Below, one piece after another: positions 3 through 60,720 of a DNA stretch of 64,000 nucleotides. A model generated the notes under the pieces. The model was not told the DNA's origin and made no database searches. It saw only the letters and a program-made list of their open reading frames with translations. Made by a program: the position numbers and the translations under genes. The stretch is from Jiella marina. GTDB taxonomy: Bacteria > Pseudomonadota > Alphaproteobacteria > Rhizobiales > Rhizobiaceae. Every line of letters starts with the position of its first letter. The stretch's first letter is position 1. Location: assembly GCF_024359545.1 (NCBI RefSeq), contig NZ_JAKQZG010000008.1:124001-188000 (forward strand). Direction: 5' to 3'.

Positions 3-1847
<1,845 letters not shown>

Positions 1848-1849
1848 GG

Positions 1850-2731
1850 TCAGTTACCCAAGGCGAGAAAACGCGCTTTCATGCGTTCTGGATCGGCCGT
1901 CTTGCCGGTGAAGTGTTCGAAGGCCGCCGCCGCCTGTCCGACGGCCATGCCGGCGCCGCCCATGGTCCGGCAGCCGAGGGCCCGCGCGCCGCGCAGGAGC
2001 TCGGTCTCCAGCGGAAAGTAGATCACGTCGGCGACCCACATGCGCGGCGTCAGCCGTTCGAGCGGGTAGGGCGTTCCCGGCAACTTCGCCATGCCGATCG
2101 GGGACGCGTTGACGATCCCGTCGAAAGGCGTTCTGTGATCATCGACCTCGTCGAGCGTTGCCGCGACACTGGCCCGGTCGGATCCGTGGCGAGCGTTGAT
2201 CGCCGTCGCCAGCGCTGTCGCGCGCGCTTCGTCCGGGTCGTGGATCACCAGATGGCCCACCTTGTTCGCCATGAGGCCGAAGGCGACGGCAAAACCTGCA
2301 CCGCCTGCGCCGAGTTGCAGCACACGGCTGCGCGCGACATCCGGCATTTCGCTGCCAAAGCTTTTGGAGAAGCCGGCAAGGTCGGTGTTGAAGCCGAGGC
2401 GGCGTCCCTCGCGGAAGATCACCGTGTTTACTGCGCCAAGCGCTCGAGCCTCGTCGCTCAACGTGTCGAGGTGGTCAAGAATCGCGACCTTGTAGGGGTA
2501 GGTGACGTTGAGGCCCGCAAATCCGCAAAGTTCTGCGGCCCGGAGCAGCTCTTCGAGCGGCGGCGGGTCCATCCGGTCGGTGTCGAACAGGCGGTAGACG
2601 AGCCTCAGACCTTGGGCTGCGCCCTCCGCCTCCTGCATGGCGGGGGTTCGGGAAAGACCGATACCCGCGCCGATCAGGCCGGCGAGCACGGTCTCGGGCG
2701 TGCCGATGGGCTGGAGGCTTGGTGGAGTCAT
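1850..2731 (-). CDS. Quinate/shikimate dehydrogenase, AroE family (QsuD-like)
   Basis: AroE-fold oxidoreductase of 293 residues. The N-terminal GLIGAGIGLSRTPAMQEAEG segment and RLVYRLFDTD resemble the catabolic NAD-dependent quinate/shikimate dehydrogenase of Corynebacterium (QsuD) more than biosynthetic AroE. The substrate-site NVTYPYK motif (near residue 76), the GAGGAG dinucleotide loop (near 142) and the NASPIGM motif (near 211) are present. It is last in a TRAP transporter operon, 30 bases after dctM, which argues for a catabolic role on an imported cyclitol acid. Biosynthetic AroE activity cannot be excluded from sequence. No strong ribosome binding site is visible before the ATG. Confidence 0.82.
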   Translation of the reverse strand: MTPPSLQPIGTPETVLAGLIGAGIGLSRTPAMQEAEGAAQGLRLVYRLFDTDRMDPPPLEELLRAAELCGFAGLNVTYPYKVAILDHLDTLSDEARALGAVNTVIFREGRRLGFNTDLAGFSKSFGSEMPDVARSRVLQLGAGGAGFAVAFGLMANKVGHLVIHDPDEARATALATAINARHGSDRASVAATLDEVDDHRTPFDGIVNASPIGMAKLPGTPYPLERLTPRMWVADVIYFPLETELLRGARALGCRTMGGAGMAVGQAAAAFEHFTGKTADPERMKARFLALGN

Positions 2732-2761
2732 TGCGGAGTCTTTGCCTGCTGGAATTCCGGT

Positions 2762-4057
2762 CTACCCGGCATAGCCGAAGAGGCGCGGTAGCCACAGCAC
2801 GATGTCGGGGAAGAGGATCAGTATCAGCAAAGCCGCGACAAGGACGGCCATGAACAGCCAGATCTCGCGGATGATCGCTCTCAGAGGGATGCCGGTGACG
2901 GCGTTGATGACGAAGAGGACGATGCCGTAGGGCGGCGTTATCAGGCCGATCATGCAATTGACCACGGCGACCACTCCGAAATGGACGAGATCGATCCCGA
3001 GCGCCCGACAGGCGGGAATGAACAGCGGAATGATCACCAGAATAAGCGTCGCAGCGTCGAGCAGGCAGCCGAGGAGCAGGAAGACGACGTTCACCAGGAT
3101 GAGGAAGGCCGTGGGCGACAGGTCGAGCGCGTCGACGAAGACCTGCATCCGGGCGGGAATGTTCTCCGAGGCGACGATGTAGTTGAAGATGAGAGCGCCG
3201 CCGATGACGATGCCGACCGCGGCCGATTGCCGGGCGCTGACGGCCATGATCCGCCACAGCGCCCTGAAGGAGAGCGCGCGGTAGAAGATCGCCGCCAGTA
3301 TCAGCGCGTAGAAGGCGGCGACGGCGGCCGCTTCGGTCGGCGTGGTGACGCCGCCATAGATGCCGTAGAGCAGGATGACGGGCATCAGGAGGGCCGGGAA
3401 TGCGTTGATCGCGAGCTTTGGCAATTTTCGCGCCGGCACCGGCTCCTCGGTCGCAAAGCCGCGCTTCGTCGCGATCCAGGCGTTCATCGCCATCAGGACG
3501 GCGCCCATGAACAGGCCGGGAAGAATGCCGCCGAGAAACAGATAGCCGATCGACTGGCCGGAGACGAGCGCATAGAGCACCATCGGGATGGATGGCGGAA
3601 TGATCGGCCCGATCGTCGAGGAGGCGGCGGTGATGGCAGCGGCATAGCCCGCCGGATAGCGGCCCTCCTTGCGCATCATTTCGATGATCAGCTTGCCGAT
3701 GCCGGCAGCATCGGCGACCGCCGAGCCGGACATGCCGGCGAAGATCAGGCTCGCGACCACGTTGACATGACCGAGGCCGCCACGGAACCGACCGACGAGG
3801 GCGACGACGAAACCCAACAGGCGCTCGGAGATCGTCCCGGCATTCATGATGTTGGCAGCGACGATGAACAGGGGCACCGCCAGGAGCACGAAGCTGTCGT
3901 AGAGCCCCTGGATCATCTGTTCGGCGGGGAGCGCCAGGTCCTGTCCCTGGACGGCCATGAATGAAATGGCACCAACGATCATCGCATAGGCGATCGGCGC
4001 GCCCAGTGCGGCGAGACCGAGAACGACAGCAAGGCAGACCAGGAAGGCGAGACTCAC
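2762..4057 (-). CDS. dctM: TRAP transporter large permease (DctM)
   Basis: Large membrane subunit of a tripartite ATP-independent periplasmic transporter, 431 residues, about twelve hydrophobic segments running the whole length. The family-typical segments MSGSAVADAAGIG (near 110), SSTIGPIIPPSIPMVLYA (near 147) and GLITPPYG near the C-terminus are present. It forms the ion-coupled channel that accepts substrate from the DctP protein. The start overlaps the dctQ stop as ATGA, showing translational coupling. The substrate is inferred from the downstream dehydrogenase to be quinate, shikimate or a related acid; the sequence alone does not show it. Confidence 0.93.
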   Translation of the reverse strand: MSLAFLVCLAVVLGLAALGAPIAYAMIVGAISFMAVQGQDLALPAEQMIQGLYDSFVLLAVPLFIVAANIMNAGTISERLLGFVVALVGRFRGGLGHVNVVASLIFAGMSGSAVADAAGIGKLIIEMMRKEGRYPAGYAAAITAASSTIGPIIPPSIPMVLYALVSGQSIGYLFLGGILPGLFMGAVLMAMNAWIATKRGFATEEPVPARKLPKLAINAFPALLMPVILLYGIYGGVTTPTEAAAVAAFYALILAAIFYRALSFRALWRIMAVSARQSAAVGIVIGGALIFNYIVASENIPARMQVFVDALDLSPTAFLILVNVVFLLLGCLLDAATLILVIIPLFIPACRALGIDLVHFGVVAVVNCMIGLITPPYGIVLFVINAVTGIPLRAIIREIWLFMAVLVAALLILILFPDIVLWLPRLFGYAG

Positions 4058-57134: not shown

Positions 57135-57386
57135 ATGGCGACGATGAATGTTTCCCTGCCCGACGCAATGAAAGAATGGGTGGAAGCCCAGGCTGGGACC
57201 GGACGCTACAGTAACGCCAGCGACTATGTGCGCGACCTCATCCGCCGCGATCAGGACCGCGCCGCAAAAATAGCTCACATGCAAGCCTTGGTGACAGAAG
57301 GTCTGGAGAGCGGCGTCAGCCCCCTCTCCATGGACGATATCGAACTCGCAGCCCGCCGAAATGCCGGTCTCGATCCAGCGGAATGA
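57135..57386 (+). CDS. parD: ParD-family antitoxin
   Basis: 83 residues. The N-terminal ribbon-helix-helix MATMNVSLPDAMKEWVEAQAGTGRYSNASDYVRDLIRRDQDR (residues 1-42) is typical of ParD1/CC2985-type antitoxins and binds DNA as a dimer; the acidic C-terminal tail would wrap the toxin. GGAGCGAGAC precedes the ATG. The stop overlaps the toxin start as ATGA. Confidence 0.92.
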   Translation: MATMNVSLPDAMKEWVEAQAGTGRYSNASDYVRDLIRRDQDRAAKIAHMQALVTEGLESGVSPLSMDDIELAARRNAGLDPAE

Positions 57387-57667
57387 TCTACAGGCTGACA
57401 GTAAAGGCGGCGGAGGATATTGAGCGCATTTACGTGGACGGGATACGTCTTTTCGGAGCGGAGCAAGCCGTCCGCTATCATGCGCGCATCCGACAAAGCT
57501 TCGAAACACTCGCGCGACATCCAGAGCTCGCCCGCGAGCGAATCGAGTTGAGCACTTCGGTTCGCATCCATCCCTGCGGTACACACATCATCATCTACAA
57601 GATCGACAAGGAAGGCGTTCTGATCGTTCGCGTTCGCCATGGCCACGAAGATTGGCTCGATAGCTGA
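57383..57667 (+). CDS. parE: ParE-family toxin
   Basis: 94 residues of the RelE/ParE fold: YRLTVKAAEDIERIYVDGIRLFG, then LARHPELARERIELSTSVRIHPCGTHIIIYKIDKEGVLIVRVRHGHEDW, ending in the strand pattern IYKxxxxxVLIxRVRHGxxDW of ParE toxins that target gyrase. It is coupled to parD. The pair is chromosomal, so it is a stress or addiction module rather than evidence of a plasmid. Confidence 0.92.
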   Translation: MIYRLTVKAAEDIERIYVDGIRLFGAEQAVRYHARIRQSFETLARHPELARERIELSTSVRIHPCGTHIIIYKIDKEGVLIVRVRHGHEDWLDS

Positions 57668-58698: not shown

Positions 58699-58808
58699 GC
58701 GGGACCGTTCTTCGCGGGCAACAGAATGGGCGCGCTCAACAGAATGGGAATGAAAGATTGCAAACACGAAAAAGGGCAGCGAGGGGGGAGCTGCCCTTTT
58801 TCGTTTGC
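58699..58808 (+). ncRNA. Possible small RNA ending in the 58760-58808 hairpin
   Basis: A TATAAT box at 58693-58698 and a strong terminator about 65-110 bases downstream frame a short transcript with no reading frame and a tandem 12-base repeat inside. No good -35 box is visible, and the boundaries are only approximate. A minus-strand transcript ending in the same hairpin is equally possible. I match it to no known RNA family. Confidence 0.3.
58760..58808. terminator. Strong bidirectional intrinsic terminator
   Basis: Arms of 19 bases (GCAAAC, then after a two-base bulge GAAAAAGGGCAGC, pairing with GCTGCCCTTTTTC and GTTTGC) enclose a nine-base loop. GC core plus T run on either strand. It lies about 150 bases upstream of the leftward DMT gene start and does not follow any annotated gene, so it probably ends an unannotated short transcript. 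Confidence 0.8.
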
Positions 58809-59204: not shown

Positions 59205-59254
59205 ACGAAACGGTCATTCCGTCCAACCGCACGGGTTCGAGCCCCGTCTTTCGT
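59205..59254 (+). promoter_or_regulatory. tRNA T-arm-like leader element before rbfA-truB
   Basis: ACGGGTTCGAGCCCCGT at 59231-59247 has the exact T-arm geometry: five-pair stem and seven-base loop TTCGAGC. It contains GTTCGAGCC, the GUUCNANNC pattern that TruB-type enzymes prefer. Outer arms ACGAAA (59205-59210) and TTTCGT (59249-59254) close a three-way structure that also holds a CGG/CCG hairpin (59211-59221). There is no D-arm and no proper anticodon arm, so it is not a normal tRNA. The rbfA start is 31 bases after the T-arm. Confidence 0.5.
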
Positions 59255-59278
59255 CCGCACTTATTCGACAGGTAGAAT

Positions 59279-59737
59279 TTGGCCCGGAAATCCACCACCC
59301 GGAAATCGTCCTCGGCTCCGTCGCAGCGCATGCTGTCCGTGGGCGAGAAGGTGCGCCACGCGCTGACCGAGATCTTCCAGCGCGGCGAGATCCGCGATCC
59401 GCTTCTCGAGAAGGCCGTCGTTTCGGTCTCGGAAGTGCGGATGTCGCCCGACCTGAAGCTCGCGACCGCCTACGTGACCGTGCTCGGCCAGGACGAGACC
59501 AAGCCCTTCGTCGACGCCTTGAACAAGAACGCGCGGTTCATTCGCGGACGTCTGACGCCGGCGTTGAAGGAAATGAAATACATGCCGGAGGTGCGGTTCC
59601 GCACCGACACCTCCTTCGACAATTTTGCCAGGATCGACGCGCTCCTGAAGTCGCCCGAGGTCCAACGCGACCTCGACCATGGCGACGATGAGGACGGCGC
59701 GGCGCCGGCGGATCACGAACACGGAGAGAAGAACTGA
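59279..59737 (+). CDS. rbfA: Ribosome-binding factor A
   Basis: 30S maturation factor binding 16S rRNA, 152 residues. A TAG lies two codons upstream in frame, so the start is either the TTG at 59279 (AGGT just before it) or the ATG at 59330; the TTG keeps the [18 protein letters not shown] start seen in rhizobial RbfA. The KH-like core [24 protein letters not shown] ... [37 protein letters not shown] is complete, followed by an acidic/His-rich tail. The stop overlaps truB. Confidence 0.93.
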
Positions 59738-60720
59738 TGGCACGGCGCGGCAAGAAGCCCAAGGGGCGGCCGATCAATGGCTGGATCATCCTCGACAAGC
59801 CGAAGGGCATGGGTTCGACGGATGCGGTGGCCAAGCTGAAATGGCTCTATTTCGCCCAGAAGGCGGGCCATGCCGGCACGCTCGATCCGCTTGCCTCCGG
59901 CATGCTGCCGATCGCGCTGGGTGACGCGACCAAGACCGTTCCCTTCGTCATGGACGGGCGCAAGGTCTATCGCTTCACCGTGCGCTGGGGCGCGGAGACG
60001 ACGACCGACGACACCGAAGGCCCGGTGACAAAGACCGCCGACGAACGCCCCGCGCGCGCTGAGATCGAAGCGGCCATGTCCCACTATATCGGGGAAATCA
60101 CCCAGGTTCCGCCAACCTTTTCGGCGGTGAAGATCGCCGGCGAGCGCGCCTATGATCTCGCCCGCGAGGGCGAGACCGTGGAGATCCAGCCCCGCACCGT
60201 CGTCGTCCACCGGCTCGAGATCGTCGACATGCCCGACGCCGAAACGACGGTGTTCGAGGCCGAATGCGGCAAGGGCACCTATGTGCGCGCAATCGCCCGC
60301 GACATGGGCCGCGAACTCGGCTGCTACGGCCATGTCACGGATCTGCGCCGCGTCGCCGTCGGTGCGTTTTCCGAAGACGACCTGGTGCCGCTGGACGAGC
60401 TGGAGGCCGCCGCCGAAGAGGGCCGCGAGGAACTCGATGCCGAAGCCATCGAGTCCGGCGCCAAGGCGCGGGTCGTCGATTTCGCCCCGCTCGACGAATA
60501 CCTGGTCGAGCCGGCGGCGGCGCTCGCCGATCTTTACGAGGTGATGCTCTCGGACGATCAGGCAAGTCGCGTCCTGTCCGGCAATCCGGTGATCCTGAGA
60601 GGCCGCGACGCTCCGGTCTTCTGCGAGGAGGCCTTCGCCACGGGCCACGGCCGACTGATCGCGTTGGGAGCCATCGAACAGGGCTCCTTCAAGCCGAAAC
60701 GGGTCTTTGCCGGGCGCTGA
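59737..60720 (+). CDS. truB: tRNA pseudouridine-55 synthase
   Basis: Makes pseudouridine at U55 of the tRNA T-loop. 327 residues. Active-site [22 protein letters not shown] with the catalytic Asp (near 50); [40 protein letters not shown]-terminal PUA-like domain with a FxxxSxxKPKRVFA-type end. It overlaps the rbfA stop as TGATG. rpsO and pnp, which usually follow, are missing. A T-arm-like sequence lies in the leader of this operon. Confidence 0.95.

What the first reader, a model, noticed from the sequence alone, without database searches (positions are those of the whole stretch)
59205..59278. T-arm mimic carrying the TruB target motif in the leader of the rbfA-truB operon
The leader contains a perfect five-pair, seven-base-loop hairpin (59231-59247) with loop TTCGAGC and the pattern GTTCNANNC, 31 bases before rbfA, whose next gene encodes TruB, the enzyme that recognises this hairpin in tRNA. 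Isolated T-arms are known to be enough for TruB, and human TRUB1 modifies mRNA hairpins with the same GUUCNANNC motif. TruB could bind or modify its own leader as feedback. The alternative is a decayed tRNA left by the rearrangement that removed infB.
Basis: partly seen in the sequence, partly recalled or inferred. Interest (0 to 1): 0.75.

Follow-up and report, generated by a model that had tools for sequence, protein, structure and literature searches.

The report
tRNA T-arm look-alike before rbfA–truB
The messenger RNA that encodes a ribosome-assembly factor and the tRNA-modifying enzyme TruB begins, in many relatives of rhizobia, with a small hairpin that imitates the part of tRNA that TruB recognises, so the enzyme may regulate its own production through this decoy.

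Summary
The hairpin is as described: ACGGG-TTCGAGC-CCCGT at 59231-59247, 31 bases before the TTG start of rbfA, and the only GTTCNANNC with 5 or more pairs in the window. Among 251 rbfA leaders the same kind of hairpin recurs in many genera and several families of the order, far above shuffles and the antisense strand, with a covarying stem and a fixed loop (U54, A58, closing G53-C61). Rfam matches no family in 11 strong loci. It is not a recognisable tRNA or terminator. The consensus GUYYNANYC nearly equals the published minimal TruB substrate GUUYRANYC, but the target base is C in 44 of 88 distinct cores. I favour TruB binding its own leader as an operator, modification being optional. TruB binding is unproven. 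The window copy is the less certain part: nine same-genus relatives lack the hairpin, and a model trained without it scores it first in the window but weakly (E 0.13) and does not list it genome-wide. The element across the order is solid; its ligand is inference.

The parts
59231..59247 (+). T-arm-like hairpin, 5 bp, loop UUCGAGC (positions 49-65 in tRNA numbering)
   Evidence: Read directly. Only GTTCNANNC with 5 or more pairs in the window. Best hit in the window of covariance model R1, trained without it: 17.6 bits, E 0.13.
59235..59243 (+). GUUCGAGCC, fits the published TruB minimal-substrate consensus 53-GUUYRANYC-61; 59237 is U55
   Evidence: consensus from PMC7912444, passage
59266..59278 (+). 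presumed ribosome-binding region of rbfA (CGACAGGTAGAAT)
   Evidence: by eye; inference
59279..59737 (+). rbfA, TTG start, 152 aa
   Evidence: NCBIfam NF001802, 196.4 bits; start lines up with the ATG-GCC-CGC of same-genus relatives (by eye)
59737..60720 (+). truB, 327 aa, start overlaps the rbfA stop by 1 nt (TGATG), so translational coupling is likely (inference)
   Evidence: TIGR00431, 220.5 bits; matches solved TruB chains such as 1k8w, 1zl3, 1r3e

Best explanation
The hairpin belongs to a conserved cis-acting RNA element of the order (Hyphomicrobiales, judged by the named carriers): a T-loop hairpin a few tens of bases upstream of rbfA-truB. Shown by computation: it exists, its loop is fixed, its stem covaries, and it also occurs before rbfA-truB where infB is not upstream. 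Inferred: free TruB, when tRNA T-arms are satisfied, binds this imitation T-arm just upstream of the ribosome-binding site, hinders initiation at rbfA and, through the overlapping start, at truB. Where base 55 is U (as in the window) the enzyme may also convert it to pseudouridine; where it is C (half of the distinct cores) it would be a non-reactive operator. In the window the same role is likely but less certain.
For: Excess over chance: a TYCNANN loop on 5 or more pairs in 31 of 171 leaders (last 130 nt, window included) against a mean of 0.9 in 20 shuffles (max 3), 5 antisense, 2 in upstream sequence, 2 reversed. Loop-blind: of 67 distinct 7-nt-loop hairpins of 7 or more pairs, 31 have T...A and 30 of these T[CT][CT]NA; antisense 1 of 55 and 0 with TYC.A. 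Selecting only the 11-mer GGTYYNANYCC: 88 distinct cores in 72 nt sense, 7 antisense, 5 in 350 nt farther upstream; the next pair out forms in 98% (63% shuffled), the one after in 84% (44%). 8 of 9 stem pairs change on both sides, covariation 0.473 against 0.165 shuffled, 0 of 500 (rows chosen for having stems). By a pattern for the IF2 C-terminus, 76 of the 171 leaders with infB upstream and 16 of the 80 without carry 11-mer plus 4 pairs. In 10 of 12 whole genomes the rbfA leader is the model's best hit; all 10 were in its training set. TruB link: gene adjacency; consensus GUYYNANYC against GUUYRANYC and sufficiency of a 17-base T-arm; GUUC sites of TruB in E. coli mRNA (PMC13062092, passages).
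Against: No binding or expression data. Base 55 is C in 44 of 88 cores. truB follows rbfA in nearly all loci (match in 179 of 181, 171 at the usual distance), so TruB cannot be told from RbfA by gene order. Fixed U54 would suit a U54 methylase too. Nine same-genus relatives lack the hairpin (only weak look-alikes: 4 pairs at -239 in G006, 4 pairs without G-C closure at -8 in G004, 3 pairs in G007) and have no DNA match to the window leader. 159 of 251 leaders fail 11-mer plus 4 pairs, including the Rhizobium and Brucella leaders read. The window's hairpin is not among the 10 matches listed for its own genome at E up to 1 (only 150 of 2815 first-look candidates were scored).
Confidence: 0.45

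Rival explanations
1. The element is real across the order, but the ligand is not TruB: RbfA itself, a T-loop methylase (TrmA/TrmFO acting on U54), or a nuclease that recognises T-arms.
For: U54 and A58 are the fixed loop bases while U55 is not; TrmA and TrmFO also act on an isolated T-arm (PMC7912444, passage); rbfA is the first gene and is hardly ever parted from truB here.
Against: The consensus fits the TruB minimal substrate except at 55 and 57. I know of no T-loop recognition by RbfA and of no methylase gene beside rbfA (recalled, not searched).
Confidence: 0.3
2. In the window the hairpin is a chance match or a re-acquired T-arm, and not the inherited element, although the element is real elsewhere.
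For: Nine same-genus relatives lack it; no DNA match to the leader in them; modest model score, 17.6 bits against 16.3 for the second hit in the window; not listed genome-wide at E up to 1; folding z-score near zero.
Against: The single GTTCNANNC with 5 or more pairs in 128 kb of strand falls on the right strand in the 72 nt before rbfA, about 0.06% by position alone; its distance, -44, is usual for the element.
Confidence: 0.4
3. Decayed tRNA (3' part of a tRNA gene or an attachment-site scar) left by the rearrangement that parted rbfA from infB.
For: 17-base identity CGGGTTCGAGCCCCGTC to the genome's own tRNA-Asp (30 of the 45 tRNA loci were compared).
Against: No tRNA by ARAGORN or Rfam; flanks no more like tRNA-Asp than shuffles (P 0.56 and 0.89); the identity stops short of the acceptor end, unlike an integration scar. 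For the element at large, base 57 is a pyrimidine in 40 of 88 cores, against a conserved purine in tRNA.
Confidence: 0.08
4. Plain terminator or mRNA-stabilising hairpin of the gene upstream, with no loop-specific reader.
For: It sits between infB and rbfA in many genomes.
Against: No terminator call at the window hairpin and no T-run after the hairpins that I read; loop kept while stem bases turn over; present in 16 of 80 leaders without infB upstream; strand-specific.
Confidence: 0.07

Closest known systems
tRNA T-arm / 17-mer TruB minimal substrate (PMC7912444, passages)
   Same: G53-C61 closing pair, U54, A58, pyrimidines at 56 and 60, 7-base loop, short stem
   Different: Base 55 is C in 44 of 88 cores, base 57 a pyrimidine in 40 of 88, stem up to 13 pairs, no tRNA around it
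Autogenous operators that imitate the protein's RNA target (E. coli thrS operator, r-protein leaders; recalled)
   Same: Imitation of the substrate in the leader of the enzyme's own operon, near the ribosome-binding site
   Different: The presumed regulator is a modification enzyme and the imitation a lone T-arm; regulation not shown
TruB/TRUB1 mRNA pseudouridine sites
   Same: T-arm-like motif in mRNA
   Different: Those are modified uridines found by sequencing; here position 55 is not kept as U
BIME upstream of rbfA in enterobacteria (PMC2965389, passages)
   Same: Hairpin element before rbfA, proposed as an attenuator
   Different: A dispersed repeat of other sequence; the E. coli K-12 leader has GTTCCATGC but I see no stem around it (by eye)

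Membership tests
TruB minimal substrate (T-arm 17-mer) | 53-GUUYRANYC-61 in a 7-base loop on a T-arm-sized stem | tested here: met
   Window: GUUCGAGCC, 5 pairs (consensus)
TruB minimal substrate (T-arm 17-mer) | U at 55 throughout the leader element | tested here: not met
   C55 in 44 of 88 distinct cores and 18 of 31 in the loop-blind set; at least 12 changes among 64 carriers on a quick RbfA tree
TruB minimal substrate (T-arm 17-mer) | Binding or modification by TruB | not testable with these tools
   needs protein and RNA
tRNA gene or relic | Recognisable cloverleaf or tRNA profile match | tested here: not met
   ARAGORN 0 in the window; no tRNA family match at E up to 10 in 54-64 kb; flanks like shuffles
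Known Rfam family | Match to one of 4227 models | tested here: not met
   No match at E up to 5 in 11 strong loci; five weak matches in 54-64 kb, none at the hairpin
Intrinsic terminator | GC-rich stem followed by T-run | tested here: not met
   No call at 59231-59247
Conserved structured RNA | Covarying stem across species above shuffles and slid controls | tested here: met
   for the element across the order; the window's own sisters were not available
Autogenous leader operator | Product represses its own leader | not testable with these tools
   no expression data

The most novel reading that the evidence does not exclude
Across Hyphomicrobiales a tRNA-modifying enzyme, TruB, is kept in balance with tRNA supply by a lone T-arm imitation in its own mRNA; lineages switch freely between a reactive (U55) and a non-reactive (C55) form of the decoy, which turns the leader into a sensor of unmodified tRNA.
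Probability: 0.35. Interest if true: 0.85.

Novelty: new variant of a known kind. Interest (0 to 1): 0.7.

Why it matters
How cells set the amount of tRNA-modifying enzymes against tRNA supply is, as far as I know, largely open, and my searches of the open library listed no report of TruB feedback or of this element. A short, strand-specific, covarying hairpin gives a cheap test: 25-base RNAs with U55 or C55 and a leader reporter in a truB deletion. If true, it shows a T-loop used as a free-standing regulatory signal outside tRNA.

Tried and rejected
Without result or rejected. Stability of the window hairpin, or of a larger fold of the leader: z between -0.74 and 0.00. A relic of tRNA-Asp: only the T-arm matches. 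Separating rbfA from truB by gene order: of 181 loci 179 hold a truB match, 171 at the usual distance, 8 at other distances (335 to 1502 nt), 2 none (two earlier pattern attempts were too narrow). A wider regulon: one search listed 70 matches in 12 genomes, 11 of them rbfA leaders (10 in first place, G055's second); of the 59 others I checked the 19 that had loci, and 16 lie on tRNA genes by ARAGORN. The three left are a hairpin after a gene that reads like an aldolase (L349), one in a coding frame of the own genome that I read as urease (L361) and one not identified (L363) (labels recalled). Only 150 of 998 to 3635 first-look candidates per genome were scored. Range: of 133 class-level genomes outside the order with an RbfA match I examined 68, plus one of the order; two leaders had the 11-mer, one of them with 4 pairs, and a third had a 6-pair hairpin at -88; two more had 4-pair look-alikes. 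Outside the class, 0 of 40 had the 11-mer; two had 4-pair look-alikes. A rpsO pattern was not reliable and is not used.

Limits of the counts. The leaders are 171 by genome handle (158 of the family, 13 of other families of the order; a part of the 295 family genomes with a match) and the best 80 of at least 565 by named record; some genomes are in both sets, judged by equal contig lengths. Many distinct cores are close Mesorhizobium relatives. The rows of A2 were chosen for loop and stem, so leans towards the structure; the 11-mer itself fixes U54, Y55, Y56, A58, Y60 and two pairs; fixes only loop length and stem. The tree is a quick one of 115-residue RbfA pieces; presence of the hairpin changes at least 19 times on it. 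Of 110 genomes, 35 gave no RbfA match; I fetched 40 of the 46 places outside the class.

Changed on re-checking: the window hairpin's absence from the genome-wide list is now told; my odds that the window copy works like the element went from 0.6 to 0.55 and rival 2 from 0.35 to 0.4 for that reason. Hoeflea was dropped from the named carriers (3 pairs only).

Full report
What is there. Window 59231-59247 (+) reads ACGGG TTCGAGC CCCGT, a perfect 5-bp hairpin with a 7-base loop that fits GTTCNANNC, with 31 bases between its foot and the TTG start of rbfA at 59279. The proteins are RbfA and TruB by NCBIfam, followed by CorA; upstream on the other strand is a transporter (weak NCBIfam matches below their cut-offs; EamA-type is my reading). 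rbfA and truB overlap by one base. infB lies on another contig. The motif alone is common (35 seen, 31 expected) and the hairpin's stability is ordinary, but motif plus 5 or more pairs occurs once in the window on both strands; the looser GTYYNANNC gives four.

Not a tRNA. ARAGORN finds no tRNA in the window and Rfam lists no tRNA match in 54-64 kb at E up to 10. The genome's tRNA-Asp shares 17 bases with the hairpin, but the rest of that tRNA aligns to the window flanks with scores that shuffles reach in 56% and 89% of cases.

Comparative evidence. I collected 171 rbfA leaders by genome handle and 80 by named record, with some genomes in both sets. Four tests agree. (1) In the last 130 nt a TYCNANN loop on 5 or more pairs is in 31 of 171 leaders, the window included, against a shuffle mean of 0.9 (max 3 of 20 shuffles), 5 antisense, 2 farther upstream, 2 reversed. 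(2) Without looking at the loop, 67 distinct hairpins with 7-nt loops and 7 or more pairs lie in -80 to -8 (251 leaders); 31 have T at 54 and A at 58, and 30 of those read T[CT][CT]NA; antisense 1 of 55, none with TYC.A. (3) Selecting only GGTYYNANYCC gives 88 distinct cores in 72 nt sense, 7 antisense and 5 in 350 nt farther upstream; outside the selected bases the next pair forms in 98% (63% when arms are shuffled), then 84% (44%), 67% (44%), 67% (49%), 60% (49%), 44% (38%), 56% (44%), 56% (47%). (4) In an alignment of 78 hairpins without the window's, 8 of 9 pairs change on both sides and the covariation score is 0.473 against 0.165 shuffled and at most 0.196 when slid (rows chosen for having stems). 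Examples: CTGACCCGG TTCCATC CCGGGTCAG, TGCAGGTCGG TTCGATC CCGGCCTGCA, GCGCTGTCCGG TCCCATC CCGGACAGCGT, CGCTTGCGG TTCTATC CCGCAAGCG.

Range. With 3 or more pairs and G-C closure, 58 of the 171 leaders in 33 genus codes carry it. Named carriers with 4 or more pairs include Mesorhizobium, Pseudaminobacter, Aminobacter, Aquamicrobium and Tianweitania; the Rhizobium and Brucella records in that list showed none. In one other family of the order all 12 genomes searched carry it, all of one genus; in another 1 of 8. Of nine further leaders from other families of the order, four have a TYYNA loop on 4 to 12 pairs. Outside the order it is rare, and outside the class 0 of 40 have the 11-mer. By a pattern for the IF2 C-terminus, 76 of the 171 leaders with infB upstream and 16 of the 80 without carry 11-mer plus 4 pairs (the equal totals 171 and 80 are a coincidence with the set sizes). 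In 12 whole genomes the rbfA leader is the model's best hit in ten, all in its training set; 16 of the 19 other hits checked, out of 59, lie on tRNA genes. Rfam has no match for 11 strong loci.

The window's copy. It sits at -44, a usual distance, and a covariance model trained without it ranks it first in 64 kb, at 17.6 bits and E 0.13, the next hit at 16.3. Against it: the nine other genomes of the genus have at best weak look-alikes and no DNA match to the leader, and the genome-wide search lists ten matches in its genome at E up to 1, not this one. I put the chance that it works like the element elsewhere at about 0.55.

What reads it. A review states that TruB accepts a 17-base T-arm with 53-GUUYRANYC-61 (PMC7912444, passages). 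The leader consensus is GUYYNANYC. TruB takes GUUC sites in E. coli mRNA (PMC13062092, passages). GU-psi-CG is reported as the predominant tRNA and rRNA motif and at a mean fraction of 19% in mRNA, though that paper also says that no motif is universally enriched in mRNA (PMC13236023, passages). A third paper names RluA as the major mRNA synthase of E. coli (PMC11421799, title and passages). The enzyme is encoded by the second gene after the leader. This argues for TruB. But base 55, the target, is C in 44 of 88 cores and changes at least 12 times among 64 carriers, so modification cannot be the shared function; binding can. Base 57, a conserved purine in tRNA, wedged between T-loop and D-loop pairs, is a pyrimidine in 40 of 88 cores, as one would expect of a T-arm that docks with a protein and not with a D-loop. 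The same review says that the U54 methylases also take isolated T-arms, and truB cannot be told from rbfA by gene order, so the ligand stays open.

Mechanism proposed (inference). Free TruB binds the hairpin upstream of the ribosome-binding site, hinders initiation at rbfA and, by the overlapping start, at truB; unmodified tRNA competes for TruB and relieves this. U55 leaders could also be modified; C55 leaders could not.

Print. I searched open papers for TruB autoregulation, rbfA leader motifs and T-loop regulation. From the listings and the passages read I saw no report of this element; the nearest is a BIME before rbfA in enterobacteria (PMC2965389, passages). Most subscription papers are not in the library.

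Noticed in passing
window 57145-57667 (+): Two small adjacent genes that read like a ParD/ParE toxin-antitoxin pair (label recalled from the ORF translations).
   Followed up: no
window 58781-58801 (+): Terminator-like hairpin with T-run between the transporter gene and the rbfA leader.
   Followed up: no
L349, centre (genome G186): A 9-bp hairpin CGCGACCGG TTCGATC CCGGTCGCG with the same T-loop after a gene that reads like a fructose-bisphosphate aldolase; ARAGORN finds no tRNA there.
   Followed up: partly
L036, L039, L040, L041, L044, L045 (six of nine same-genus leaders): By eye they share a different hairpin before rbfA (around TCTCGGCGCC...GGCGTCGAGA); in at least four the gene upstream ends like RutE (label recalled).
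   Followed up: no
L287-L298 (one genus of another family of the order): All 12 genomes carry CCCGG TCCGANC CCGGG (one TCCGG...CCGGA) at -44 to -52 before rbfA.
   Followed up: partly
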